From positions 796,001-860,000 of the forward strand of contig NZ_AP024480.1 in assembly GCF_017347585.1 (NCBI RefSeq): a stretch of DNA of 64,000 nt, given 5' to 3'. Positions within the stretch are counted from its first letter, which is position 1; every line of letters begins with the position of its first letter. The notes below the pieces were generated by a model. That model was not told the DNA's origin. It saw only the letters and a program-made list of their open reading frames with translations, and did no database searches. Below, piece after piece: positions 1,203-62,287 of this stretch. This DNA comes from Caldicellulosiruptor diazotrophicus. GTDB taxonomy: Bacteria; Bacillota; Thermoanaerobacteria; Caldicellulosiruptorales; Caldicellulosiruptoraceae. Both the position numbers and the translations under genes were made by a program.

Positions 1203-4200
1203 GTGAGGCTCTATTTTTGCCAGTAAAACCTGTTAAGATTGAGTTTGACAAATCAAGTATGGATCTTAAGGTTTATGTTGAGAGCCTTGATAACCTGAAA
1301 GATATTGACCTCATTGGAATTGAACAAAGATTCAAGTCTCTTTTAGAAAGTTGCAGAGATGTTGAGATAAAACTCTTCAAAACCAGAAACCTGACGTTGG
1401 AAGAACTTTTGAAAAAATATAGATGGTTTTTGTTTTATAAGATTTCAAAAAGATGTAACGGTCTTAGCCATTTTTTGAGAGAATGCGAGATTGTGCAAAG
1501 TTCAAGCGGCTTAGATTTTTTGGTTCCAAATGGTATCAGAGATATTCTTTTTGAAAGAAAAGTAGATGTGCTTGTAAAGCAAATACTGTCTGAAGAGTTC
1601 GGAATAGTATGCGACGTGGATTTTAAGATTAAAGACTTTTTTATCCAGTTTGATACAGACCAAGAAGTAGAAAAATATCTAAGGCTTAGCGAGGAAAAGA
1701 AAGAAGAAACAGAAAAAATTACAAGTGAAAAGAATGAGGTTGAGACAGACCCGACCATTATATTTGGCAAAAAGATAGATGAAAAGAAAGAGGTAACTCC
1801 TATTTCTCTTGTCAAAGTTGGTACTGATTGCGTGATCGAAGGTGAAATTTTTAATCTTGAGATAAAAGAGACTAAAAACCAAAATGTGCTCATATACAAG
1901 CTTTACATCACAGACTATTTAAATTCAACCTTTGTAAAAATTGTTGCTAAGAAAGATAAAATTCCTACTTCAATTTCTGTTGGAGATTATGTTAAGGTTG
2001 AAGGCAGGGTAGAATTTGACGATTTTGAAAAAGCGGTTGTGGTTAATGCTAAAAACATAAACAAAAGTCAAAAACCTCAGCGACTTGATACAAGCGATAA
2101 CAAGAGAGTAGAACTTCATGCTCACACCAAAATGTCTGCTATGGATGCTGTGTGCTCTGCAGAGGAGATTATAAAATTGGCAGCTTCAATGGGACACAGA
2201 GCAGTTGCAATAACAGACCATGGAGTTGTTCAAGCGTTTCCAGAAGCACAGGAGGCTAGCAAAAGCTGTAATATCAAAGTTATCTATGGGATGGAATGCT
2301 ATCTTATTGATGACGGCGCGCCAGTTGTTTACAATCCTAAGGAAGGACAAGGATTTGACTCTACCTTTGTGGTTGTTGACATTGAAACAACAGGGTTTGA
2401 CAGTCAGAGAGATAGAATAATAGAAATTGGTGCTGTGAAGATAGAAAACGGTCAAATAACAGAGAGATTTTCTACATTTGTCGACCCCGAAGGCAAAATC
2501 CCTGTCAGGATATCAGAGCTAACAGGCATATACCAAGATATGGTTGATAAAGCCCCAAAGCTGAGTGACGTCATTTTAGAATTTGAAAAGTTTGCGAGCG
2601 GTAGCGTTCTTGTTGCGCACAACGCTCAGTTTGATATTGGATTTTTGAAAAAGGCGTACCATGAGTGTGGAATTATTTTCGACTATACATATATCGATAC
2701 GCTGGAACTTTCAAGAAGGCTTTTGACAGACCTTTCTTCTCATAAGTTAAACAAAGTTGCTGAGTTTTTAAATATAGAGTTAAAACATCATCACAGAGCT
2801 GATTCTGACGCAGAAACAACAGCTGGTATCTTTATTTCTCTTGTGGAAAGATTAAAAGCAAGAGGGTACAAATGGTTAAAAGAATTTAATTCAATTGAGT
2901 CAAACGCAAAAGCAGACCTCAAGTCTCACAGCTATCATGCAACTATACTTGTAAAGAACCAGCAGGGGTTAAAAAATCTCTACAAACTGGTATCGTATTC
3001 TCATTTAGAATACTTCTATAAAAGGCCAAGGATACCCAAAAGTCTTTTGATACAATTAAAAGATGGACTTTTGATAGGAAGTGCGTGTGAGTCCGGTGAA
3101 ATTTTCAGGGCCTTTTTAGAAGGAAAAAGTGAGGAAGAGATAGAAAAGATAGCAGCATTTTATGATTTCCTTGAGATAATGCCGGTTGAGAATAATTCTT
3201 TTTTGATTAGAGAAGGATACTTAAAAGATGAAGAAGATTTAAGAGAAATCAATAAAAAGATTTACAATCTTGGCAAAAAACTTGGCAAGCTTGTTGTTGC
3301 GACATCTGATGCGCACTATTGTCATCCACACCAGAGAGTGTTGCGCCAGATTTTAAAACATAACCAAGGGTACGATGATGTTGAAAATGACCCACAGCTT
3401 TATTTCAGAACAACTGATGAAATGCTCAAGGAATTTGAATATCTTGGCAGTGATGCTTGTTATGAAGTTGTTGTAGAAAATACCAATAAGATTGCCGATA
3501 TGATAGAAGATGTAAAACCAATACCCGATGAGACTTTCCCACCCAAGATTGAGGGTGCTGAGGAAGAAATATACAACATGACAATGAAGAAAGCTCACGA
3601 AATATATGGAGACCCTCTTCCGGAAATTGTAAGAGCACGGCTTGAAAAGGAACTGAATTCGATAATCAAGAATGGTTTTGCGGTGATGTATTTGATTGCC
3701 CAAAAACTTGTATCTAAATCTTTGTCAGATGGGTATCTTGTTGGGTCACGAGGGTCTGTTGGTTCTTCTCTTGTTGCGACAATGTGTGGGATAACAGAGG
3801 TAAATCCGTTGCCCCCACATTATGTTTGTCCACACTGTAAGTATTCCGAGTTTATAACAGATGGTTCTGTTGGATGTGGTTATGACTTGGAAGACAAAAA
3901 CTGTCCACGCTGTGGGGAAAAACTTAAAAAAGATGGGCACGACATACCGTTTGAGACCTTTTTGGGATTTGATGGGGATAAAGAACCTGATATTGACCTT
4001 AACTTTTCTGGTGATTATCAGCCAATTGCACACAAGTTTACAGAAGAACTGTTTGGACAAGGTTATGTGTTCAGAGCTGGTACAATATCAACAGTTGCAG
4101 AAAAGACAGCACATGGTTTTGTAACAAAGTATGCAGAAGAAAAAGGTTTGAGTCTTCATCCTGCAGAGATTTTGAGACTTTCTCAGGGTTGCACAGGAGT

Positions 4201-5407
4201 AAAAAGAACAACAGGCCAGCATCCTGGGGGGCTTATGATTGTTCCAAGAGACAAAGAGATATTTGATTTTACACCAATCCAGCATCCGGCAGATAGCACT
4301 GACAAAAGCGTTATCACAACGCACTTTGATTACCATGCTATCTCAGGAAGACTTTTGAAGCTTGATATTCTTGGCCACGACGACCCGACTGTCATACGAA
4401 TGCTCCAGGACTTGACGGGAGTTGACCCGCGTTCAATTCCTCTTGATGACAAAGATACGATGTCAATTTTTACAAGCACAGAAGCTCTTGGAATTTCTCC
4501 TGAGGACATAGATTGTGAAGTAGGGACTTTCGGTATACCTGAGTTTGGTACAAGATTTGTAAGACAGATGTTAATTGAGACAAAACCAAAGACGTTTGCT
4601 GAACTTGTTCGTATTTCAGGTCTTTCGCATGGCACAAATGTGTGGACAAACAATGCTCAGGATTTAGTAAGAAATGGAATTGCAACGCTCAAAGAGGTAA
4701 TTTCTACAAGAGACGATATTATGTTATATTTAATTCAAAAGGGTGTTCCACCAAAAGACAGTTTCAGAATCATGGAAGATGTTAGAAAAGGTAAAGGATT
4801 AAAGCCGGAGGATGAGCAGCTTCTAAGAGCTCACAATGTACCGGACTGGTATATAGAGAGTTGCAAAAAGATAACGTACATGTTCCCAAAAGCACATGCT
4901 GCAGCGTATGTAATGATGGCGTTCAGGATTGCATATTTCAAAGTACATTATAAGGAGGCTTTCTATGCAACATATTTTACAGTCAGAGCAGACGACTTTG
5001 ATTATGCAACAATCATCAAGGGGAGAGATGCTATAAGGCAGAAGATAAGGGATTTGGAAAACAGGATAAGTAGTCTTTCTCAGAAAGACAAAAACCTTCT
5101 GACAGTGCTTGAGATTGCAAATGAAATGTTAGCACGAGGTCTAAAATTTTACCCTGTTGATTTGAATGAGTCTGATGCAGAGAGGTTCATCATAAAAGAT
5201 GGAGGACTTTTAATACCTTTTAGTGCTCTGCCAAATGTTGGGGTGGCAGCTGCAAAAAGTATTGTTGAGGCGAGAAAAGAAGGAAGGTTTTTGTCGGTGG
5301 ATGACCTTATAAGACGTGCAAAGCTAAACAAGCAGGTAATAGAGATTTTGACTCAGTATAAAGTGTTGAAAGACTTGCCTCAAACAAGTCAGCTAAGCTT
5401 TTTCTAA
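1199..5407 (+). CDS. polC: DNA polymerase III alpha subunit, PolC type
   Basis: The Gram-positive replicative polymerase, 1402 residues, close to the usual PolC length. Domains in order: an N-terminal region, an OB fold (about 205-295), a PHP domain starting near 304 (VELHAHTK) that is split by a DEDD proofreading exonuclease (VDIETTGFD near 393), then the palm with catalytic aspartates in EPDIDLNFSGD (near 929). Two CxxC pairs near 877 and 901 form the PolC zinc site. The last residues, QLSFF, fit the beta-clamp binding motif. The start overlaps the upstream glycosyltransferase gene. Confidence 0.98.
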   Translation: MSEALFLPVKPVKIEFDKSSMDLKVYVESLDNLKDIDLIGIEQRFKSLLESCRDVEIKLFKTRNLTLEELLKKYRWFLFYKISKRCNGLSHFLRECEIVQSSSGLDFLVPNGIRDILFERKVDVLVKQILSEEFGIVCDVDFKIKDFFIQFDTDQEVEKYLRLSEEKKEETEKITSEKNEVETDPTIIFGKKIDEKKEVTPISLVKVGTDCVIEGEIFNLEIKETKNQNVLIYKLYITDYLNSTFVKIVAKKDKIPTSISVGDYVKVEGRVEFDDFEKAVVVNAKNINKSQKPQRLDTSDNKRVELHAHTKMSAMDAVCSAEEIIKLAASMGHRAVAITDHGVVQAFPEAQEASKSCNIKVIYGMECYLIDDGAPVVYNPKEGQGFDSTFVVVDIETTGFDSQRDRIIEIGAVKIENGQITERFSTFVDPEGKIPVRISELTGIYQDMVDKAPKLSDVILEFEKFASGSVLVAHNAQFDIGFLKKAYHECGIIFDYTYIDTLELSRRLLTDLSSHKLNKVAEFLNIELKHHHRADSDAETTAGIFISLVERLKARGYKWLKEFNSIESNAKADLKSHSYHATILVKNQQGLKNLYKLVSYSHLEYFYKRPRIPKSLLIQLKDGLLIGSACESGEIFRAFLEGKSEEEIEKIAAFYDFLEIMPVENNSFLIREGYLKDEEDLREINKKIYNLGKKLGKLVVATSDAHYCHPHQRVLRQILKHNQGYDDVENDPQLYFRTTDEMLKEFEYLGSDACYEVVVENTNKIADMIEDVKPIPDETFPPKIEGAEEEIYNMTMKKAHEIYGDPLPEIVRARLEKELNSIIKNGFAVMYLIAQKLVSKSLSDGYLVGSRGSVGSSLVATMCGITEVNPLPPHYVCPHCKYSEFITDGSVGCGYDLEDKNCPRCGEKLKKDGHDIPFETFLGFDGDKEPDIDLNFSGDYQPIAHKFTEELFGQGYVFRAGTISTVAEKTAHGFVTKYAEEKGLSLHPAEILRLSQGCTGVKRTTGQHPGGLMIVPRDKEIFDFTPIQHPADSTDKSVITTHFDYHAISGRLLKLDILGHDDPTVIRMLQDLTGVDPRSIPLDDKDTMSIFTSTEALGISPEDIDCEVGTFGIPEFGTRFVRQMLIETKPKTFAELVRISGLSHGTNVWTNNAQDLVRNGIATLKEVISTRDDIMLYLIQKGVPPKDSFRIMEDVRKGKGLKPEDEQLLRAHNVPDWYIESCKKITYMFPKAHAAAYVMMAFRIAYFKVHYKEAFYATYFTVRADDFDYATIIKGRDAIRQKIRDLENRISSLSQKDKNLLTVLEIANEMLARGLKFYPVDLNESDAERFIIKDGGLLIPFSALPNVGVAAAKSIVEARKEGRFLSVDDLIRRAKLNKQVIEILTQYKVLKDLPQTSQLSFF

Positions 5408-5436
5408 AAATTTATTGTTAGGAAAGGGAAAAAGAT

Positions 5437-6072
5437 ATGAAAGGTGTTGTAATCTCAAGTGGCAAGATTGCAAGCAAGTCATTTTATGATGAACATATGA
5501 AAGATGCTGATTTTATAATTTGCTGTGATGGTGGAGCAAACGTGGCATACAAATATGGTTTTGTTCCAAACCTGATAATAGGCGACTTTGACTCTGTAGA
5601 CAGAAGAATTTTAGAATATTTCAAAATTAATGGCATACAAATAATGGAATTTCCTTGTGAAAAGGATAAAACAGATACACAGATTGCTATTGAGTATTTG
5701 GCAGAAAATGGATTTGACGAGGTGGTAATGCTTTCTTGCACTGGCGAAAGACTTGACCATGTTCTTGCCAACATAAGTCTTTTATATTATCTGCTTGAAC
5801 GTGGTATAGTAGGTACAATAGTAGATGAAAACAATATAATCATGATGACAAGAGACAAAATAAAAATTCATGGTAAAAAAGGTCACTTACTTTCTTTGCT
5901 TCCATACACGCAAACTGTGAGTGGTATTTGTACCAAAGGTTTGTATTATTCGTTAGAAAATGGTGTGATGAAGTTTGGCAATCCTTATGGTGTGTCAAAT
6001 GTTATTATTGAAGATGAAGCAATTGTTGAGGTAAAAGATGGGGTTTTATTAGTAATATTATCAAGTGATTAA
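5437..6072 (+). CDS. thiN: Thiamine pyrophosphokinase
   Basis: A 211-residue enzyme that pyrophosphorylates thiamine to TPP with ATP. Recognisable motifs are CCDGGANVAYKYG, PNLIIGDFDSV, the acidic DKTDTQIAIEYL and TGERLDHVLANI, followed by the C-terminal beta domain that binds thiamine. It lies 29 bases after polC with a GGAAAGGG ribosome binding site, so it is probably the last gene of the ispG operon. The short gap after it carries a possible promoter for the next gene. Confidence 0.95.
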   Translation: MKGVVISSGKIASKSFYDEHMKDADFIICCDGGANVAYKYGFVPNLIIGDFDSVDRRILEYFKINGIQIMEFPCEKDKTDTQIAIEYLAENGFDEVVMLSCTGERLDHVLANISLLYYLLERGIVGTIVDENNIIMMTRDKIKIHGKKGHLLSLLPYTQTVSGICTKGLYYSLENGVMKFGNPYGVSNVIIEDEAIVEVKDGVLLVILSSD

Positions 6073-6074
6073 AT

Positions 6075-6103
6075 TTGATAAAAGTATTCATACTAAATAA
6101 ATA
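6075..6103 (+). promoter_or_regulatory. Possible SigA promoter for the GlsB-like gene
   Basis: TTGATA at 6075-6080, a 17-base spacer, and TAAATA at 6098-6103. It lies just after thiN and before the GlsB-like gene. Only the -35 box is strong. Confidence 0.4.
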
Positions 6104-6133
6104 GAGGCTCCATCAAAAAGGGGGTCAAAACTT

Positions 6134-6406
6134 ATGCTCGGATTTATAATGACCCTAATTGTTGCAGCAATTGCAGGGTATATAGGCGATGCACTAACCA
6201 AATACAAGATGCCAGGTGGATTTATTGGTGCTATGATTGCTGGACTTGTTGGGTCTTGGATTGGAGCATATATTCCGTTTTTCAGAAAACTTGGACCTGT
6301 GATTGCTGGTATTCCTATTATTCCAACCATCCTTGGCGCAGCAATATTTATATTTGTACTGGGAATGTTCAGAAAAGGGATTGATACGGCAACCAAACAA
6401 CAGTAG
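6134..6406 (+). CDS. GlsB/YeaQ/YmgE family stress response membrane protein
   Basis: A 90-residue, very hydrophobic, glycine-rich protein with about three membrane helices. Helix breaks such as GAMIAGLVGSWIGAYIP match the transglycosylase-associated (GlsB/YeaQ) family, which in other bacteria is linked to general stress. Its biochemical role is unknown. AAAAAGGGGG before the ATG is the ribosome binding site. A strong terminator follows directly, so it is the last or only gene of its transcript. Confidence 0.8.
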   Translation: MLGFIMTLIVAAIAGYIGDALTKYKMPGGFIGAMIAGLVGSWIGAYIPFFRKLGPVIAGIPIIPTILGAAIFIFVLGMFRKGIDTATKQQ

Positions 6407-6417
6407 CAGTAAAATTT

Positions 6418-6455
6418 GGCTGATAAGGAAAGGCTCCTTATCAGCCTTTGTTTTT
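6418..6455 (+). terminator. Rho-independent terminator
   Basis: Perfect 12-bp stem (6418-6429 with 6435-6446), 5-base loop, then a T-rich tail. It closes the GlsB-like gene. Confidence 0.92.
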
Positions 6456-6606
6456 GGTAAGATAGTTTAGACATGTTATCTAAAAGGTTTTTGAAAAGTT
6501 TGTTTAAAAAATCAATAGTTTTTAATCGCAAATAATTGTATAGTCTATATTAGAAGAAGATTTATTACAAGTTTATATACAATACTGTGTAGGAGGTTAA
6601 AGAAAA

Positions 6607-7719
6607 GTGGCAAGTGTAAGATTAAAAGGTGTTTACAAGAGATATCCTGGTGGTGTTACAGCTGTTTCTGACTTTAACTTAGATATTGAGGACAAAGAAT
6701 TCATAGTTTTGGTAGGACCATCTGGTTGTGGTAAGACAACAACACTGAGAATGATAGCAGGTCTTGAAGAGGTAACAGAAGGCGAAATCTACATAGGGGA
6801 CAAGCTGGTAAATGATGTCCCACCGAAGGACAGAGACATTGCGATGGTTTTCCAGAACTATGCTTTGTATCCTCACATGACTGTTTTTGAAAATATGGCA
6901 TTTGGTCTCAAACTCAGAAAATTTCCTAAAGATGAGATAAAAAGACGTGTACATGAAGCTGCTAAGATTTTGGGAATTGAGCACCTACTTGACAGAAAAC
7001 CGAAGGCTCTGTCCGGTGGTCAGAGACAGAGAGTGGCTTTAGGTCGTGCTATTGTAAGAGAGCCAAAAGTATTCCTCATGGATGAGCCTCTTTCAAACTT
7101 GGACGCAAAACTCAGAGTTCAGATGAGAACAGAGCTATCTAAGCTTCACAAGAGGCTTGGAACAACATTCATCTACGTTACACACGACCAGACAGAAGCT
7201 ATGACAATGGGTACAAGAATTGTTGTTATGAAAGATGGATTTATTCAGCAGGTAGACACTCCCCAAGTTCTGTATGAACAACCTGCAAACCTATTTGTGG
7301 CAGGTTTCATTGGTTCGCCACAGATGAACTTCATTGAATCAAGGATTGAGCAAAAGGATAAGAACTTATATGTTGTATTTGGAAACAACGCAATAAAACT
7401 TCCAGAAGGAAAGGCAAAGAAGGTTGAAGAGCTTGGCTATGTTGGAAAGGAAGTTATAATGGGTATAAGACCAGAGGATTTGCACGATGAAGAGATATTC
7501 CTGCAGACAGCTCAGGATGCTGTTGTTGATGCACATGTTGATGTTGTTGAGATGCTTGGTTCTGAAACACTTCTGTATGTAGTTGTTGATGGGCTTAACC
7601 TCATTGCAAGAGTTGATCCAAGGTCAAAAGCAAAAGCTGGCGACAAGATCAAACTTGCGTTTGATGTCAACAGAATTCACCTGTTCGACAAAGAAACAGA
7701 GAAGGCTATTGTTCACTAA
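6607..7719 (+). CDS. Sugar ABC transporter ATP-binding protein, MsmX/UgpC type
   Basis: A 370-residue CUT1-family ATPase that energises oligosaccharide ABC importers. It shows Walker A (GPSGCGKTT), the signature LSGGQRQR, Walker B with [14 protein letters not shown], the H-loop THDQTEAMT, and a C-terminal TOBE/MalK-type regulatory domain from about residue 235. It stands alone with its own terminator and no permease beside it. This is typical of MsmX, a shared ATPase that serves several sugar transporters. GTG start preceded by AGGAGG (6591). Confidence 0.93.
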
Positions 7720-55140: not shown

Positions 55141-56355
55141 TTATAAAGATGCAACAAGTAAAAAAACATCAAGTCCAATTACTAAAGCTGCCACTGTCAA
55201 AAGAATTATTTTATCAACTAAAGAGTTTGCGAACTTACCCATGACTTTTTTGGATGACGTCAGATAAATTTGAAGAAGAATTGTAATTGGCAGCTGAACA
55301 CTCAATAGCATCTGTGAGATTATCAGAGCTTTGAATGGGTTGGAAATAAAAAGTATGATAATGGATGCTAAAACTAATGGAATGGTAATTCCAATCTTAG
55401 TTGGCAACTCTTCTATGTTGTAAGGTCTTCTATAAAAGCCTGCCATGATTGTTCCACCTGTATATGCAGCTGTGATGCTTGAGGATATGCCAGAAAGCAA
55501 TAGAGCAAATGCAAAAATTGTTGCAGATAAACTTCCCAAAATGGGTTTTAACATCTGCTGAGCCTGTGGTAGCGATTCAACAAGGATACCTTTTTTGTAA
55601 AAGGTTGCGTGAGCTATTATAATCATGCTGCTGTTAATTAAAAATCCTATAAACATTGAAAAAAGTGTATCAACAAACTCAAATTTGAGCTGATGTTTTA
55701 TTACCTTTTCATCTTGAGTGTTCCATTGCCTGCTCTGAATTATTTCAGAATGCAAAAACAAATTGTGTGGCATGACAACCGCACCAAGTATTGAAAGAAC
55801 AACAACCAGTGAACCAGAAGGTATGCTTGGAGTTATCCAGCCAAAGACCACATCTTTTACAGGGACCTTCACAAGAAAAAGCTCTATCAAAAAGGAAAGA
55901 CCTATCAGCGACACAAACGCAATTATCCACCTTTCAACCTTTTTATATGAGTTAGAAAATAAGAAAAATATAGTAAAAGGCAGGATGATTAAACACCCAA
56001 ACTTAATAGGAATTTTAAAAAGCATCTCAAGGGCAATTGCCGCGCCTAAGATTTCTGCCATAGCAGTTGAGACTGTTGCGAGCATGGCAGATGAAAGCAC
56101 CACTGTGGCAAGAGATTTATTAAGATAGATTGAAGTTGCTTCAGCCAAGCAAAGACCTGTTGCAATGCCAAGATGAGCTGCGTTGTGCTGAAGTACTATC
56201 AAAATTAAGGTTGATAGTAAAACTACCCACAAAAGTTTTAAACCAAACTGGCTTCCTGCAGCCACGTTTGATGCCCAGTTTCCAGGGTCGATAAATCCCA
56301 CTGTGACAAGAAGGCCCGGTCCTATGTATTTGAGTATTTCCCTTGCGTTTTTCAT
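55141..56355 (-). CDS. Nramp-family divalent metal transporter
   Basis: A 404-residue membrane protein with 10-11 helices. The helix 1 metal site is DPGNWASNVAAG, and helix 6 carries VVMPHNLFLHS, including the metal-contacting Met. These match bacterial MntH-type Mn/Fe importers. No Mn riboswitch is visible in the roughly 210-base divergent region upstream. A metal-responsive repressor is possible but I find no clear box. Confidence 0.9.
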   Translation of the reverse strand: MKNAREILKYIGPGLLVTVGFIDPGNWASNVAAGSQFGLKLLWVVLLSTLILIVLQHNAAHLGIATGLCLAEATSIYLNKSLATVVLSSAMLATVSTAMAEILGAAIALEMLFKIPIKFGCLIILPFTIFFLFSNSYKKVERWIIAFVSLIGLSFLIELFLVKVPVKDVVFGWITPSIPSGSLVVVLSILGAVVMPHNLFLHSEIIQSRQWNTQDEKVIKHQLKFEFVDTLFSMFIGFLINSSMIIIAHATFYKKGILVESLPQAQQMLKPILGSLSATIFAFALLLSGISSSITAAYTGGTIMAGFYRRPYNIEELPTKIGITIPLVLASIIILFISNPFKALIISQMLLSVQLPITILLQIYLTSSKKVMGKFANSLVDKIILLTVAALVIGLDVFLLVASL

Positions 56356-56565
56356 TTTGTGCTGCCTTTCACACCTTTCTTCTCAAGTAATTTTATGAAA
56401 TATCTTCTAAAGTGGTGAATAGATAAATAGTAAATCTTATCTCAAGCTCTTATATTAAAATTAATACCCAAAAAAAGATGATTGTGATATCATAGTTTGT
56501 ATGAAGCTAAAAATATTTAAATGGGAACTGGACATTTTGAACACTAAAATATTGGAGGTAGAACA

Positions 56566-57993
56566 ATGATCGAAAAGTCTTACGGCCAAGAGCTTTACGA
56601 AAAGCTATCCTACACTTCTAAAAATGCGTGGGAAGTTTTAAAAGAAGAAGAAAAGCCTTTTGTTTTTGATTTGGCAGAAAAGTATAAGCACTTTTTGAAC
56701 TGTGCAAAGACAGAAAGAGAAGCAGTTGAATATTTCATAGAAAGAGCTAAAGAAAAAGGATATAAAGAATTTAACAATAATATCCAAGAATTAAAGCCAG
56801 GTGATAAAGTATATTTTGTCAACAATAACAAAAGCATTTTGCTTGCTCATATAGGGAAAAAACCTTTAAAGGAAGGATTCAATCTGATAGGTACCCATAT
56901 AGATTCTCCACGACTTGACTTAAAGCCAAAACCACTATATGAGTCAAATGAACTTGCACTTTTGAAGACCCACTACTATGGTGGCATTAAAAAATATCAC
57001 TGGGTAAATGTACCACTTAGCATCCACGGAGTTGTTGTGAAAAGTGATGGTTCAAAAGTAAAGATTACAATTGGTGAAGATGAAAATGACCCTGTTTTTT
57101 ATATAACAGACCTTCTTGTTCACTTGTCTTCTGATCAGCTTCAGAAAAAGGCAAGTGAGGTAATTCCAGCTGAAAACTTGAATGTGCTTATAGGAAGTAT
57201 GCCGTTTAATGATGAGAAGGTGAAAGAAAAAGTAAAACTTAATGTCTTGAAGATTCTGAATGAAAAATATGGTATTACAGAAGAAGATCTTATTTCAGCG
57301 GACATTGAAGTTGTGCCGGCTGCAAAAGCACGTGATGTGGGGCTTGACAGAAGCCTAATTGGCGCATATGGTCAGGATGACAGAGCATGCAGTTTTTTGG
57401 CAGCAGAAGCTATATTCTCAATTGATGAAATTCCCGAAAAGGCTGCGATAGTCTACTTGGTTGACAAAGAGGAAATAGGAAGTGTAGGAATATCAAGCGC
57501 TGAGGCAAGCTTTTTTGATATATCAGTTGCAAAGCTAATGAAAGCTTTGGGTGAGTACGAGAATAGCCTTGATTTGGCTCTTTGCTTTGAAAACTCAGCA
57601 GCAATTTCGGGTGATGTTGCAGCAGCCCTTGACCCAACATATGAAGGTGCTTATGATAAGCTCAATTCTACGCTAATTGGCCACGGTGTTACAATTGAGA
57701 AGTATACAGGAGTTAGAGGCAAATACAGTGGTTCTGAAGCAACAGCAGAGTATGTGGGCAAAATCAGAAACTTTTTGAACTCAAATAACATTTGCTGGCA
57801 GACAGGGCTTTTAGGTAAAGTTGACCAAGGCGGTGGAGGTACAATTGCTATGTTTATCGCAAGAAAAATGATAAATGTAATAGACTCAGGCGTTCCAGTT
57901 CTGTCTATGCACTCAACATTTGAGATAACAAGTAAGGTTGATGTTTATATGACATACAAGTTTTATAACCAGTTTTTGAGAAAGTTTGAATGA
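56566..57993 (+). CDS. M18 family aminopeptidase
   Basis: A 475-residue cytoplasmic zinc aminopeptidase (ApeA/LAP4 type). Metal and catalytic residues appear in GTHIDSPRLDLK, YGQDDRACSF, VDKEEIGSVG and SMHSTFEI. It removes N-terminal, often acidic, residues from peptides. GGAGGT lies 6 bases before the ATG. It is followed by a terminator. Confidence 0.94.
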   Translation: MIEKSYGQELYEKLSYTSKNAWEVLKEEEKPFVFDLAEKYKHFLNCAKTEREAVEYFIERAKEKGYKEFNNNIQELKPGDKVYFVNNNKSILLAHIGKKPLKEGFNLIGTHIDSPRLDLKPKPLYESNELALLKTHYYGGIKKYHWVNVPLSIHGVVVKSDGSKVKITIGEDENDPVFYITDLLVHLSSDQLQKKASEVIPAENLNVLIGSMPFNDEKVKEKVKLNVLKILNEKYGITEEDLISADIEVVPAAKARDVGLDRSLIGAYGQDDRACSFLAAEAIFSIDEIPEKAAIVYLVDKEEIGSVGISSAEASFFDISVAKLMKALGEYENSLDLALCFENSAAISGDVAAALDPTYEGAYDKLNSTLIGHGVTIEKYTGVRGKYSGSEATAEYVGKIRNFLNSNNICWQTGLLGKVDQGGGGTIAMFIARKMINVIDSGVPVLSMHSTFEITSKVDVYMTYKFYNQFLRKFE

Positions 57994-58000
57994 AAGTTTT

Positions 58001-58036
58001 GCGAGGCTACAAATTATTTGTGTAGCCTCGCTGTTT
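58001..58036. terminator. Terminator between convergent genes
   Basis: A perfect 11-bp stem (58001-58011 with 58021-58031) and a short T run. It separates the M18 gene from the RiPP-like cassette. Confidence 0.85.
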
Positions 58037-58054
58037 AAAAAGATTTATATTATT

Positions 58055-59236
58055 TTATCTACTGTGCTGAAGTATTTTATAATAGTTTTTTGATAAGTTA
58101 ATAAAATAAACCATTCCTATTAATGTGATGTTAATTCCGCAGATTAAGAAGATTATCTTAACAGATATAGTATTAGATATAATTCCTCCAATTAATAATG
58201 AAATAATTGAGGAGATATTTCCCACGATTGAATTAAAGCTAAAAACTCTTCCTAATAGTTTCTTGTTACAATTTTCTTGGATTATAGTAGTTCGAGCAAT
58301 AGCATAAAATGAATTACATATTCCATTCACAAAATGGATGAAAAGAGCAAAGACAAAAATATTACTTAATGAGAATAAAGTAGTAGAAATACCAATACCT
58401 ATTACTCCTGTTAAAAGGAGAGTCTCATTTTTTATTGTTTTTATATATTTATAAACATAAAGTGAGGTAATAACCATTGCAGTTCCTTTTGATGTCAGAA
58501 TAAAACCATATCCTTTTGAATCAGTATGTAAATAGTTAATCACATAAACGATTAACAGTCCGTTTAGAATTCCTGCAAATAAACCAATCAAACCATTGAG
58601 AATTATTAAACTTTTTATGATAAAGTTAGATTTCAAATATTTTAAAAATTCCAAATATCTTATGTTTTTACTTTTATTTTCAGTGCTTTCATATTTATGG
58701 TACGAAATCTGAGAAATAAAAATGGCAGAAACAAGAAAGGTAAATGAATCAATAAAAAAACAATATTTCAAATTAAGATAAGAAGTTAATAACCCACCTA
58801 TTGAGGGACCAATAACCATCATAATGGAATTTAATGAGCTACTGAGACTGTTAATTTTACGTATTTCTTCTTTGGTGGTTAGTTCTGGTATAATACTATT
58901 TCTTGTATTTTCATAAATAGCGGTGACAGAAGATATAATAAACACAATCAAAAACACATAATTGGTGAAATATGGCAATAATATTACTAATAACGCTCTC
59001 GAAATATCTCCAAATACCAAAATTGTTTTTTTGTTTGATAAATCAATTATTTTCCCAAATGGAATACCAAATATAATAGCAGGTGATAATATTAAAATAG
59101 AAAGAATAGACATTTGTAAACTTGACTTACTAACGTTATACACTAATGTAAGTAAAGCAACCCTATCAATCCAATTTCCAATCTCTGATATAAATTGAGA
59201 GCATAACAAGTTAATAGCATTTCTATTCTTTTTCAT
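58055..59236 (-). CDS. MFS efflux transporter of the RiPP-like cassette
   Basis: A 393-residue MFS protein of the MFS_3 (MefA-like) efflux type with 12 helices. The N terminus has SQFISEIGNWIDRVALLTLV, and the loop after helix 2 has the motif A-like GKIIDLSNKKTILVFGD. Codons are strongly AT-biased (many ATA, TTA, AAT), more than in flanking genes. Its ATG overlaps the stop of the PqqD-like frame (ATGA), so it probably exports the product of the radical SAM pathway. Unlike the two genes before it, it is intact. Confidence 0.88.
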   Translation of the reverse strand: MKKNRNAINLLCSQFISEIGNWIDRVALLTLVYNVSKSSLQMSILSILILSPAIIFGIPFGKIIDLSNKKTILVFGDISRALLVILLPYFTNYVFLIVFIISSVTAIYENTRNSIIPELTTKEEIRKINSLSSSLNSIMMVIGPSIGGLLTSYLNLKYCFFIDSFTFLVSAIFISQISYHKYESTENKSKNIRYLEFLKYLKSNFIIKSLIILNGLIGLFAGILNGLLIVYVINYLHTDSKGYGFILTSKGTAMVITSLYVYKYIKTIKNETLLLTGVIGIGISTTLFSLSNIFVFALFIHFVNGICNSFYAIARTTIIQENCNKKLLGRVFSFNSIVGNISSIISLLIGGIISNTISVKIIFLICGINITLIGMVYFINLSKNYYKILQHSR

Positions 59237-59505
59237 TCTTTAGTATCTCCCTGAATTAGAATGTTTTTCTCTAATAGAATTTTTATAAAGTTTTCTATAG
59301 TTTTAGTAGCCGCTTTAATATCATCGTTAGTCTTTTGACATACAAATTTTACCAGTTAAGGCATACTCTTGGATTTGAGAGCACACTCAAAAATGATATA
59401 CCCTATATCATTTAGTAAGAAAGTTTCACCTGTTTTTGTATTAAAGAAAATATACTCTTCTTCAGTTTCTTGCCTTACATTGATAAATTCATTTTTCTTA
59501 AACAT
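59233..59505 (-). pseudogene. PqqD-like RiPP recognition protein with an internal stop
   Basis: A 91-codon frame, 90 residues plus stop, starting MFKKNEFINVRQETEEEY. It matches PqqD/RRE proteins: FFNTKTGETFLLNDIGYIIF, then helices with ENFIKILLEKNILI. Codon 50 (59356-59358) is TAA in the middle of the fold. Normal sequence continues in the same frame on both sides, so it is a point nonsense change, probably from GAA or CAA. PqqD proteins bind the precursor peptide leader. GGAGG lies 11 bases before the ATG. The stop overlaps the MFS start. Confidence 0.8.
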
Positions 59506-59528
59506 TTCAATTTGTTCCTCCATTCATA

Positions 59529-60572
59529 TTAATTATGCCAGCATCGACTGTCAATACCATTAAGATTTTTATTAACATAATAAGCAAGAGCCCTACAACC
59601 ACCCATACAAGTACTAAAATGAGCACAAAGGGGGCAATTGTCATTGGAAAGTTCTCTAAAGAGATTAAAGACTTGGGAATGGTTCCATATAGATAAAAAA
59701 TCATTTTGCAGTATGTTTCCAGCAATAAATTTTTTTTCTCTAAAAAAAAAACACACGGTGTAATATCTCCATTAGCTTTTATGTGAACTATAATATTTGC
59801 TGCTTCACATATAACCTTTTTTTCCCTGTTAATCCATTGCAGTAAAGTAAAGTTCGAATAATTTATTTCATTTTTTTGTCAAATACTAAAGTGCTTAGTA
59901 ACTTATATGGTTTTATGATTTTAAACTCAGGTGTATTTTCAAATTTGTTCATTGTAATATAAGCTTTTTTAATTTCTTCGTTTGAAGGAACTAACATCAT
60001 TTTTTCATTTGAATTAGGGATAAAATCTATAAATCTAACACTATTTACTTTAATTTTTTTAGCAAATATTATAAAATCCTCCACTAAATTTATATTCGTC
60101 TTCAACAATACCATTGAAAGGCAAATCGGGATTTTAAATTCTTTTAAATATTCAATGCTTTCTAAAATTCTATCAAAATAAGTTTCTGAACCTCTTATAT
60201 TAGAATAGCATTCTTTATTTGGGGCATCTAACTTATTTGTAATGTTAATATTTTATAATTTGCAAGCTCTTTAGCTAATTCTCTTGTAATTAATGTTCCG
60301 TTTGTTGTTATTTTAGGGATATAGCCTTTTTCATTTAAATATCCTATTATTTCTAACAGATCGTTTCTCAAAAAAGGTTCTCCGCCTTCAATGTTTATTC
60401 TAAAGACTTCGGTTTTATGTAGAATATCTATAACTTTTTTGCAATCCTCAATAGAAAGAGATAGGGATGAAGCATAAAAATTATCATCATTTGAACAATA
60501 ATTGCATCTTAAATTGCATTGATTTGTTATTTCCCAACTTGCAAGTTCTGGAGCTCTTAAAATTCTGTTCAT
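59529..60572 (-). pseudogene. Radical SAM/SPASM peptide maturase with three frameshifts
   Basis: Together the fragments make one protein of about 348 codons. Segment 1 (60572-60231) has CNLRCNYCS and IEGGEPFLRNDLLE, and ends in LQIS. One missing T near 60229-60232 breaks it before DAPNKECYSNIRGSETYFD. Segment 2 ends at 59863, where an A7 run (59871-59877) is one base short. Segment 3 has CEAANIIVHIKANGDITPC. A run of ten (59742-59751) is again off by one. Segment 4 has CPLCAHFSTCMGGC and DSRCW, the SPASM cluster ligands. GAGGAAGTG precedes the ATG. Sequencing error in homopolymers cannot be excluded. Confidence 0.85.
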
Positions 60573-60622
60573 TGTATTTTCACTTCCTCAATTTGAAATA
60601 ATTGTTGATTTTTTTGTGAAGA

Positions 60623-60651
60623 AGGAGGTTCGTTAAAGGTGCGAACCTCCT
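60623..60651 (-). terminator. Hairpin between the peptide gene and the maturase gene
   Basis: A perfect 10-bp stem AGGAGGTTCG/CGAACCTCCT with a 9-base loop, 18 bases after the peptide stop. No T run follows on the minus strand. It is therefore more likely a stabiliser or partial attenuator than a full terminator. Confidence 0.7.
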
Positions 60652-60669
60652 GAAGAAAGTATGCATAAT

Positions 60670-60726
60670 TTAATGTATATTATCACAACCTGCAAACATC
60701 TCTACAATAATAGGTTGTTTTTTCAT
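60670..60726 (-). CDS. Candidate RiPP precursor peptide
   Basis: An 18-residue frame, MKKQPIIVEMFAGCDNIH, preceded by AAGGAAGGAG with good spacing and followed by a stable hairpin. It lies 97 bases upstream of a radical SAM/SPASM gene and in the same direction as the PqqD-like and MFS genes. PqqA and mycofactocin precursors have a similar position. The peptide has a Lys-rich start, a hydrophobic middle and a C-terminal GCDNIH that may be the modified core. I know no matching RiPP family. A chance frame is possible, but the binding site and position argue against it. Confidence 0.65.
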   Translation of the reverse strand: MKKQPIIVEMFAGCDNIH

Positions 60727-60754
60727 CAAACCCCACTCCTTCCTTTTGATATAG

Positions 60755-60783
60755 ACTTTAAGCTTTAATATTCAGCAGTTCAA
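60755..60783 (-). promoter_or_regulatory. Possible promoter of the RiPP-like cassette
   Basis: On the minus strand TTGAAC (60783-60778), a 17-base spacer and TAAAGT (60760-60755). It would start RNA about 25 bases before the peptide ATG. The -10 box is weak. Confidence 0.45.
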
Positions 60784-60895
60784 TAGTTTTACATAATAAT
60801 TGTAAAAAAAAAAAGCAATATACAAAATGCATAAATTATAGATATATTTATTGTGCTGCATATCTAGAACTAATAGACCAATTATTAAATCCTTT

Positions 60896-62287
60896 TTATT
60901 TCATCTCCTCTATCAACTTCACAGCCTCATCTAAAAGTCTTTTGACCTCGTTTTTGGAAAACTGTTCTGTGTAGACCCTCAAAACAGGTTCTGTGCCAGA
61001 TGCCCTAAAGAGTATCCATGAGCCATCTTCAAAGATATATTTATAGCCGTCCAATGTTTGAATCTCTTTAATCTTTCTGCCTGCAAACTCTGTGTTTTGG
61101 GAAATCATCTTCAACGTCTTTTCTTTAATTTCGTTTGGCAAATGCAGGTCAACCCTGTCATAGTAATGGTAGCCAATTTCCTTAAAAAGTTCATCAAGTA
61201 TTTGACCAATTGGTTTTTGATAATAAGCCATAATCTCAAGAAGCAGCAAGCTACACAAAATTCCATCTCTTTCAGGTATATGATTTTTAATTCCAATACC
61301 TCCGCTTTCCTCGCCACCAATGAGAATGTCTTCTTTTAAGAAAAGTTCGCAGATATATTTAAAACCAATCGGTGTTTCGTAGATTTTGAGCCCGTACTTG
61401 TTTGCCAAAATAGGAACCATATTGGTTGTTGAAAATGTTTTTACAACACCACCCTTTAAACCTTTTACTTCAACTAAATGTCTCAGAAGCAGTGCATATA
61501 TTCTGTGTGAATCAATAAACTCTCCTTTTTCATCAACAGCGCCAACTCTATCTGCATCTCCATCTGTTGCAAGGCCAATGTCTGCTTTGTTTTGGACAAC
61601 AGTATCAATCAATTTTCCAAGGTTTTTATAAATAGGTTCTGGGTTGACTCCACCAAAGTACGGGTTTCGCTCATCTCTTATCTGGATGTGTTTAATTCCA
61701 TATTTTTCTAACAAGGTTTTAACATATCCAACTCCTGCGCCGTGCATTGGGTCGATTATTGCAAATGGCTTTACTTTTGCAATTAGATTAAAATCTACAA
61801 GCTTTTCAATGTGTTCAAAATACTCTTTGTCAGGGTCTATATAAGAAAAAATATCACTACTTTCGGGTTCAACAAATTTTGCTTTATTTTTATATAAATG
61901 TTTTTCTATCTCGCTAATAATAGACGGAAGAGCAGACCCACCATAATCACTTTTAAATTTTATACCATTCCACTGGGGTGGATTGTGGCTTGCTGTAATC
62001 ATTATAGCTCCTGCTAAATTCATGTTCTTGACAGTAAATGATACAACAGGTGTGGGTGTTGGCTTTTTTGTAAGATATGTCTTTATCCCATTTGCAACAA
62101 GAACCCCTGCACAAAGCCGAGCATACTCTTCCGACATAAACCTTGTGTCATATCCTACCAAAATAGGTCTTTTGTCATCAATTTCTTTGATATAATCAGC
62201 AATTGCTTGGGCGACAATCTTTACATTGTCAAAGGTGTAATCTTTGCTAATCACAGCTCTCCAGCCATCCGTGCCAAATTTTATCAT
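60896..62287 (-). CDS. Phosphoglucomutase/phosphomannomutase family protein
   Basis: A 463-residue alpha-D-phosphohexomutase. It has the phosphoserine loop TASHNPPQWNG, the metal loop DGDADRVGA, the sugar loop GGEESGGIG and the phosphate loop RASGTEPVLRVY. It interconverts hexose 1- and 6-phosphates. The exact sugar (glucose, mannose or glucosamine) is uncertain. AGGAGGTGAAG lies before the ATG at 62287. It is divergent from the two-component genes. Confidence 0.92.
   Translation of the reverse strand: MIKFGTDGWRAVISKDYTFDNVKIVAQAIADYIKEIDDKRPILVGYDTRFMSEEYARLCAGVLVANGIKTYLTKKPTPTPVVSFTVKNMNLAGAIMITASHNPPQWNGIKFKSDYGGSALPSIISEIEKHLYKNKAKFVEPESSDIFSYIDPDKEYFEHIEKLVDFNLIAKVKPFAIIDPMHGAGVGYVKTLLEKYGIKHIQIRDERNPYFGGVNPEPIYKNLGKLIDTVVQNKADIGLATDGDADRVGAVDEKGEFIDSHRIYALLLRHLVEVKGLKGGVVKTFSTTNMVPILANKYGLKIYETPIGFKYICELFLKEDILIGGEESGGIGIKNHIPERDGILCSLLLLEIMAYYQKPIGQILDELFKEIGYHYYDRVDLHLPNEIKEKTLKMISQNTEFAGRKIKEIQTLDGYKYIFEDGSWILFRASGTEPVLRVYTEQFSKNEVKRLLDEAVKLIEEMK

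What the first reader, a model, noticed from the sequence alone, without database searches (positions are those of the whole stretch)
60670..60726. An 18-residue candidate precursor with a single Cys in a C-terminal GCDNIH
The peptide MKKQPIIVEMFAGCDNIH is shorter than PqqA (about 23) and has one Cys, one Asp, one Asn and a terminal His. SPASM enzymes commonly make Cys thioethers or C-C links at acidic or aromatic positions, so GCDNIH is a possible core. With so short a leader, recognition by the PqqD-like protein would have to use the KKQPIIVEM part. The AAGGAAGGAG site is among the better ones in the window.
Basis: partly seen in the sequence, partly recalled or inferred. Interest (0 to 1): 0.75.

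Follow-up and report, generated by a model that had tools for sequence, protein, structure and literature searches.

The report
18-residue radical-SAM RiPP precursor gene
The 18-residue frame is a real, conserved precursor gene for a small enzyme-modified peptide made by a four-gene operon in heat-loving clostridia; in this genome the modifying enzyme is broken and only the precursor and the exporter gene survive intact.

Summary
The frame is real: window 60726..60670 on the minus strand reads MKKQPIIVEMFAGCDNIH, with AAGGAAGGAG 9 nt before the ATG. It is a genuine gene. A degenerate pattern for MKKxxIIxxMxxGCD hits exactly 8 places in 37 genomes of the class, each exact, each 66-115 nt upstream of a SPASM-type radical-SAM gene or its remnant; the reversed control hits none. 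In a second family (maturase 52% identical) the peptide is MKKSPIIRQMVVGCDNVH while the surrounding intergenic DNA is unrelated.

The gene heads a four-gene operon: precursor, radical-SAM/SPASM enzyme, PqqD-like chaperone, MFS exporter. It matches the streptococcal tryglysin (wgk) operon in order, and in the second family also has a nearby HTH-TPR regulator. The precursor and enzyme fit no curated family.

In this genome the operon cannot make product: the maturase carries three frameshifts and the chaperone a nonsense codon. The maturase is broken in six of eight loci by private lesions. The exporter is intact in 11 of 12 and is kept, under purifying selection, in four genomes that lost the rest. 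This suggests the exporter also gives immunity and the product is inhibitory (inferred). The chemistry at GCD[N/S][I/V]H is undetermined. I rate it a new member of a known kind.

The parts
60670..60726 (-). Precursor peptide gene, MKKQPIIVEMFAGCDNIH (18 aa); probable leader MKKQPIIVEMF(A), probable core (A)GCDNIH
   Evidence: Conserved frame, start, stop and ribosome site in 8 loci of two families
60736..60745 (-). Shine-Dalgarno site AAGGAAGGAG, 9 nt before the ATG
   Evidence: Read directly; GGAG-type site kept in all 8 loci
60623..60651 (-). 10-bp hairpin AGGAGGTTCG/CGAACCTCCT between precursor and maturase genes, no T run after it; probable mRNA-stabilising or partial-termination element that lets the precursor outnumber the enzyme
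   Evidence: Fold z = -4.6; a hairpin of different sequence lies at the same place in the second family
59529..60572 (-). Radical-SAM/SPASM maturase, pseudogene: -1 near 60231, -1 near 59877, +2 near 59750; CxxxCxxC and the SPASM cysteines still recognisable
   Evidence: Alignment with the intact 347-aa gene of G011; Pfam Radical_SAM and SPASM matches
59233..59523 (-). PqqD-like peptide chaperone (96 aa when intact); here interrupted by TAA at codon 56 (59356-59358)
   Evidence: Alignment with G011/G005/G004; Pfam PqqD match of the intact copy, E 1e-7
58055..59236 (-). MFS exporter, intact, 393 aa; probable product exporter and immunity pump
   Evidence: Pfam MFS_1 E 1e-34; intact in 11 of 12 loci, dN/dS 0.13-0.24 in most within-genus pairs

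Best explanation
The frame is the precursor gene of a radical-SAM/SPASM RiPP and heads the operon precursor / maturase / PqqD-like chaperone / MFS exporter. Shown by sequence: the precursor is conserved between two families together with the maturase; the maturase keeps CxxxCxxC and the SPASM cysteines found in MftC; the chaperone is a PqqD-family protein; order and strand are constant. Inferred: the chaperone binds the MKKxPIIxxM part, the maturase modifies the C-terminal GCD[N/S][I/V]H, a host protease trims it to about 6-7 residues (by analogy with tryglysin, VNCWGKH), and the MFS protein exports it and protects the cell. The product is most likely an inhibitory peptide: the maturase is lost again and again while the pump is kept. 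In this genome the operon is dead at the maturase and chaperone steps, so the peptide, if made, stays unmodified.
For: Eight of eight pattern hits lie at the cassette and control hits are zero. Peptide similarity across families is far above shuffles and intact cassettes exist in G011 and G031. Pfam matches: Radical_SAM 6e-27, SPASM 1e-9, PqqD 1e-7, MFS_1 2e-34. The maturase lesions are all private: own (three indels), G004 (-1), G005 (large deletion), G032 (22-bp deletion), G028 (-2 and +1), G034 (nonsense and +1). Exporter intact 11/12 versus maturase 2/8, Fisher p = 0.004, not corrected for relatedness. Exporter without biosynthetic genes in G001, G002, G003 and G029, with dN/dS 0.21 for G002 against G003. 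The precursor itself has decayed in G002 and G003, where the maturase is gone.
Against: No mass-spectrometric or expression data. Only two intact cassettes are known. The MFS protein could be a general drug pump that merely sits there. The intact precursor in this genome says little about present use: cassette DNA is about 99% identical to G011 over most 250-bp windows, so there has been little time for decay.
Confidence: 0.8

Rival explanations
1. Same operon, but the chemistry is mycofactocin-like: the maturase oxidatively decarboxylates the C-terminal His (Tyr in G005) and may link it to the beta carbon of the preceding Val/Ile; the Cys is not modified.
For: MftC is the best NCBIfam match of the G011 enzyme (166.6 bits) and second best for G031 (183.5). 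MftA ends G-V-Y; the intact cassettes here end [I/V]-H, both with a tertiary beta carbon. MftC chemistry is described in PMC9062424.
Against: Below the MftC cut-off of 265; the tree does not join it to MftC with support. No mftD, mftE or mftF homologue was seen among the neighbouring ORFs, and an exporter is not expected for a cofactor. G004 has Arg at position 17.
Confidence: 0.25
2. The modified peptide is a pheromone, not an inhibitor; non-producers are signalling cheaters and the pump is an unrelated efflux protein.
For: In the second family the operon sits beside an HTH-TPR regulator and a 44-residue signal-peptide-like frame. The only amino-acid changes within the genus fall in the last three residues, as expected of a specificity tail.
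Against: No such regulator in any genome of the window's genus. The 44-residue frame is itself a better pheromone candidate. A signal alone does not explain keeping the pump after biosynthesis is lost.
Confidence: 0.2
3. The 18 codons are a regulatory leader peptide of an attenuator, not a substrate.
For: A short frame is followed by a hairpin before the maturase gene.
Against: No T run follows the hairpin and no terminator is called; no run of regulatory codons; 11 of 18 residues conserved between families including MKKxPIIxxM; no other precursor candidate stands upstream of the enzyme in all loci.
Confidence: 0.05

Closest known systems
Streptococcal WGK / tryglysin operon (wgkABCD with Rgg/SHP), PMC8092268
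   Same: Same gene order: very short unannotated precursor (21 aa), radical-SAM enzyme, RRE protein, transporter. HTH-TPR (RRNPP-like) control nearby in the second family. WgkB is the second or third best full-length profile match. The last seven residues of the G031 peptide, VGCDNVH, share V-x-C-x-x-x-H with tryglysin B, VNCWGKH.
   Different: No Trp-Gly-Lys core, so the tetrahydrobenzindole link is impossible. Enzyme scores 148-174 bits against a WgkB cut-off of 650. Transporter homology to WgkD not tested. Found in thermophilic clostridia.
Mycofactocin (MftA/MftB/MftC)
   Same: Best or second-best profile match of the enzyme; all SPASM cysteine positions shared; PqqD-family partner; precursor ends in beta-branched residue plus aromatic/His, with a Cys nearby.
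   Different: 29% identity, below the equivalog cut-off; no MftD/E/F beside it; an exporter instead; precursor about half the length.
PqqA/PqqD/PqqE
   Same: Short precursor, separate PqqD-type chaperone, SPASM enzyme.
   Different: 24% identity; PqqA's Glu/Tyr pair is absent from the precursor; no other pqq genes.
Ryptide-type operons with an MFS exporter (NCBIfam NF041056)
   Same: Radical-SAM RiPP exported by an MFS protein; weak match of our exporter (29-45 bits).
   Different: Far below the cut-off of 575; no Arg-Tyr core in the intact cassettes.

Membership tests
Radical-SAM/SPASM RiPP (general class) | Radical_SAM and SPASM domains with CxxxCxxC and auxiliary-cluster cysteines | tested here: met
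   Intact G011 enzyme: PF04055 6e-27, PF13186 1e-9; cysteines aligned with MftC. In this genome the gene is broken.
Radical-SAM/SPASM RiPP (general class) | Conserved short precursor gene linked to the maturase | tested here: met
   8 of 8 pattern hits at the cassette, control 0
Radical-SAM/SPASM RiPP (general class) | Recognition element (PqqD/RRE) | tested here: met
   PF05402 1e-7
Radical-SAM/SPASM RiPP (general class) | Demonstrated modified peptide | not testable with these tools
   Needs mass spectrometry
Mycofactocin | MftC above the curated cut-off (265 bits) | tested here: not met
   166.6 and 183.5 bits
Mycofactocin | mftD/E/F neighbours and MftA ending GVY | tested here: not met
   Neighbours are PqqD-like and MFS genes; peptide ends [I/V]H
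WGK / tryglysin | WgkB above the curated cut-off (650 bits) | tested here: not met
   147.9 and 174.4 bits
WGK / tryglysin | Trp-Gly-Lys core | tested here: not met
   Core is GCD[N/S][I/V]H
WGK / tryglysin | Order precursor, enzyme, RRE, transporter | tested here: met
   G011 and G031 against PMC8092268
Ranthipeptide PapB (CX3D thioether) | PapB above the curated cut-off (340 bits) | tested here: not met
   96 bits; the peptide has CX3H, not CX3D
PQQ | PqqE above the curated cut-off (381 bits) and a PqqA Glu/Tyr pair | tested here: not met
   114 and 129 bits; no Tyr in the intact-cassette peptides

The most novel reading that the evidence does not exclude
A new radical-SAM RiPP subfamily (GCD[N/S][I/V]H) with one of the shortest known precursors, whose enzyme acts on the last five residues to make a link not yet described, such as a Cys14-His18 thioether (CX3H) or a decarboxylated C-terminal His joined to Val/Ile, giving a heat-stable inhibitory hexa- or heptapeptide with the MFS pump as immunity.
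Probability: 0.3. Interest if true: 0.65.

Novelty: new member of a known kind. Interest (0 to 1): 0.45.

Why it matters
It shows that a tryglysin-type operon (tiny precursor, SPASM enzyme, PqqD protein, exporter) exists well outside streptococci, in thermophiles, with a core motif no curated family covers. The recurrent, independent loss of the maturase with retention of the pump is the pattern expected of resistant non-producers. It makes the question of self-immunity, left open for tryglysin in PMC8092268, directly testable. It also shows that an 18-codon gene can be recognised by cross-family conservation.

Tried and rejected
Chance frame: rejected. Viral relatives: none confirmed; the one viral pattern hit (L060) lies in a different context and looks like chance. 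Plasmid and phage collections: only distant homologues at about 23-30%, those annotated being mostly mycofactocin, PQQ and NirJ enzymes. Two even samples of about 400 genomes of the phylum: no close maturase outside the class, only some at 32-33%, and one chance pattern hit that reads like the start of pyruvate kinase. Distant maturases have no related short frame upstream. Family tree: too star-like to place the enzyme. Rfam: no meaningful match. Attenuator or terminator: not called. A first version of the short-frame shuffle test was faulty because it compared only frames of similar length from the most upstream start; the corrected test is. Sequencing error as the whole cause of the broken maturase: unlikely, since lesions in other genomes include a nonsense codon and a 22-bp deletion and the chaperone here has a substitution nonsense codon; but the three homopolymer indels in this genome's maturase could not be checked against reads. 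The literature search found a genome-mining paper that lists other Caldicellulosiruptor RiPPs (PMC4289311); I did not see this operon among the passages shown.

Full report
What was checked. The window lies in a 2.6-Mb genome. DNA search of 12 genomes of the genus found the region in three others.

Cassette. In G011 (L022) it is intact: peptide 4739-4795, radical-SAM/SPASM enzyme 4893-5936 (347 aa), PqqD-like 5942-6232 (96 aa), MFS 6229-7386. Domain matches are clear. A class-wide search found the same cassette in four genomes of another family, with one intact copy in G031 (L043: peptide 4143-4199, enzyme 2982-4034, PqqD-like 2706-2981, MFS 1544-2713, all minus). The enzymes are 52% identical.

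The precursor family. The eight peptides are MKKQPIIVEMFAGCDNIH (own)...GCDSIH (G011)...GCDSRH (G004)...GCDSIY (G005), MKKSPIIRQMVVGCDNVH (G031, G032, G028) and MKKSLIIRQMVVGCDNVH (G034). Invariant: M1 K2 K3 I6 I7 M10 G13 C14 D15; P5 in seven of eight. Position 17 is Ile/Val and position 18 His in both intact cassettes; Arg17, Tyr18 and Leu5 occur only where the enzyme is broken or deleted. Within the genus all three amino-acid changes are in residues 16-18 while other changes are silent. The match between families is far above shuffled controls and the DNA around it is unrelated. A pattern search over the class gave 8 hits, all at cassettes, none elsewhere at up to 3 mismatches.

Operon structure. 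A hairpin lies between precursor and enzyme genes in both families, with different sequence (window 60623-60651), suggesting conserved differential expression. A T run of 10 to 26 lies 76-78 bp upstream of the start codon in four genomes. In the second family a HTH-TPR regulator follows the MFS gene and a 44-residue signal-peptide-like frame precedes the precursor. The regulator is absent from the genus of the window.

State in this genome and elsewhere. Here the enzyme has -1, -1 and +2 indels and the chaperone a TAA at codon 56, so the operon cannot make its product; the MFS gene is intact. Enzyme lesions in the other genomes are all different: G004 -1, G005 a deletion of most of the gene, G032 a 22-bp deletion, G028 -2 and +1, G034 nonsense and +1. 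The locus sits between a phosphohexomutase and an M18-type aminopeptidase gene (names by my reading of the sequences). Those genes are about 48-51 bp apart in four genomes of the genus (calculated). G001, G002 and G003 keep only the MFS gene there, with a decayed precursor in G002 and G003; G001's exporter is a divergent allele (61%). G029 keeps MFS plus regulator. Exporter intact 11 of 12, enzyme 2 of 8, p = 0.004, uncorrected for relatedness. Exporter dN/dS is 0.13-0.24 in most within-genus pairs; the exception, own against G011 (0.78), rests on few changes. Between own and G011 the cassette is nearly identical (exporter dS 0.02) while the adjacent phosphohexomutase has dS 0.31, so the cassette has probably moved by recombination and then lost its enzyme quickly.

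Interpretation. The precursor identity is well supported. What the enzyme does is not known. Candidate sites are Cys14 and the C-terminal [I/V]-H. Profile scores put the enzyme near MftC, WgkB and heme synthases without reaching any curated cut-off, and the tree is unresolved. The closest operon by order and by the form of its product is tryglysin: wgkA (21 aa), wgkB, wgkC (RRE), wgkD (transporter) under Rgg/SHP control, product VNSWGKH or VNCWGKH (PMC8092268). By analogy the product here would be about (A/V)GCD[N/S][I/V]H. The analogy of V-x-C-x-x-x-H is a lead, not a test.

Function. Repeated loss of the maturase with a maintained pump fits an inhibitory product with pump-based immunity. A signal, a metal-binding peptide (the core holds Cys, Asp and His) or a general drug pump cannot be excluded.

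Noticed in passing
window 60804-60814 (minus strand) and L022, L023, L024: A T run of 11, 26, 17 and 10 bases at a constant 76-78 bp upstream of the precursor start codon in four genomes; the length varies strongly, which could tune or phase-vary expression.
   Followed up: partly
window 55500-62250: Identity to G011 is about 99% over most of the cassette, 94-97% over most of the flanking phosphohexomutase and aminopeptidase genes (one window at 82%), and 64-78% beyond: a recombination mosaic.
   Followed up: partly
L045:2868-3002 (also L043, L044, L046): A 44-residue signal-peptide-like frame MNKKIKILILFTLMFAVLTLVISIIPLEDPPALTLNSSSVCNVV upstream of the precursor, with an HTH-TPR regulator downstream of the operon: a possible peptide-pheromone pair.
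   Followed up: partly
L063:2312-2419 (Agathobacter rectalis plasmid NZ_CP143948.1): Unannotated 35-residue frame MFNLEELSLEFVKISELKTSKNLFGPVMYGTGVRM with a good ribosome site and a hairpin-like repeat after it, upstream of a radical-SAM gene and an MFS gene: possibly another precursor of the same operon design.
   Followed up: no
own genome G000:C1:1605778-1607856: Tandem pair of intact radical-SAM/SPASM genes, 35-37% identical to the G031 maturase, function not examined.
   Followed up: no
L108 (G007), between aminopeptidase and phosphohexomutase genes: A 1.9-kb insert with a transposase-like long frame sits at the cassette's site in this genome.
   Followed up: no
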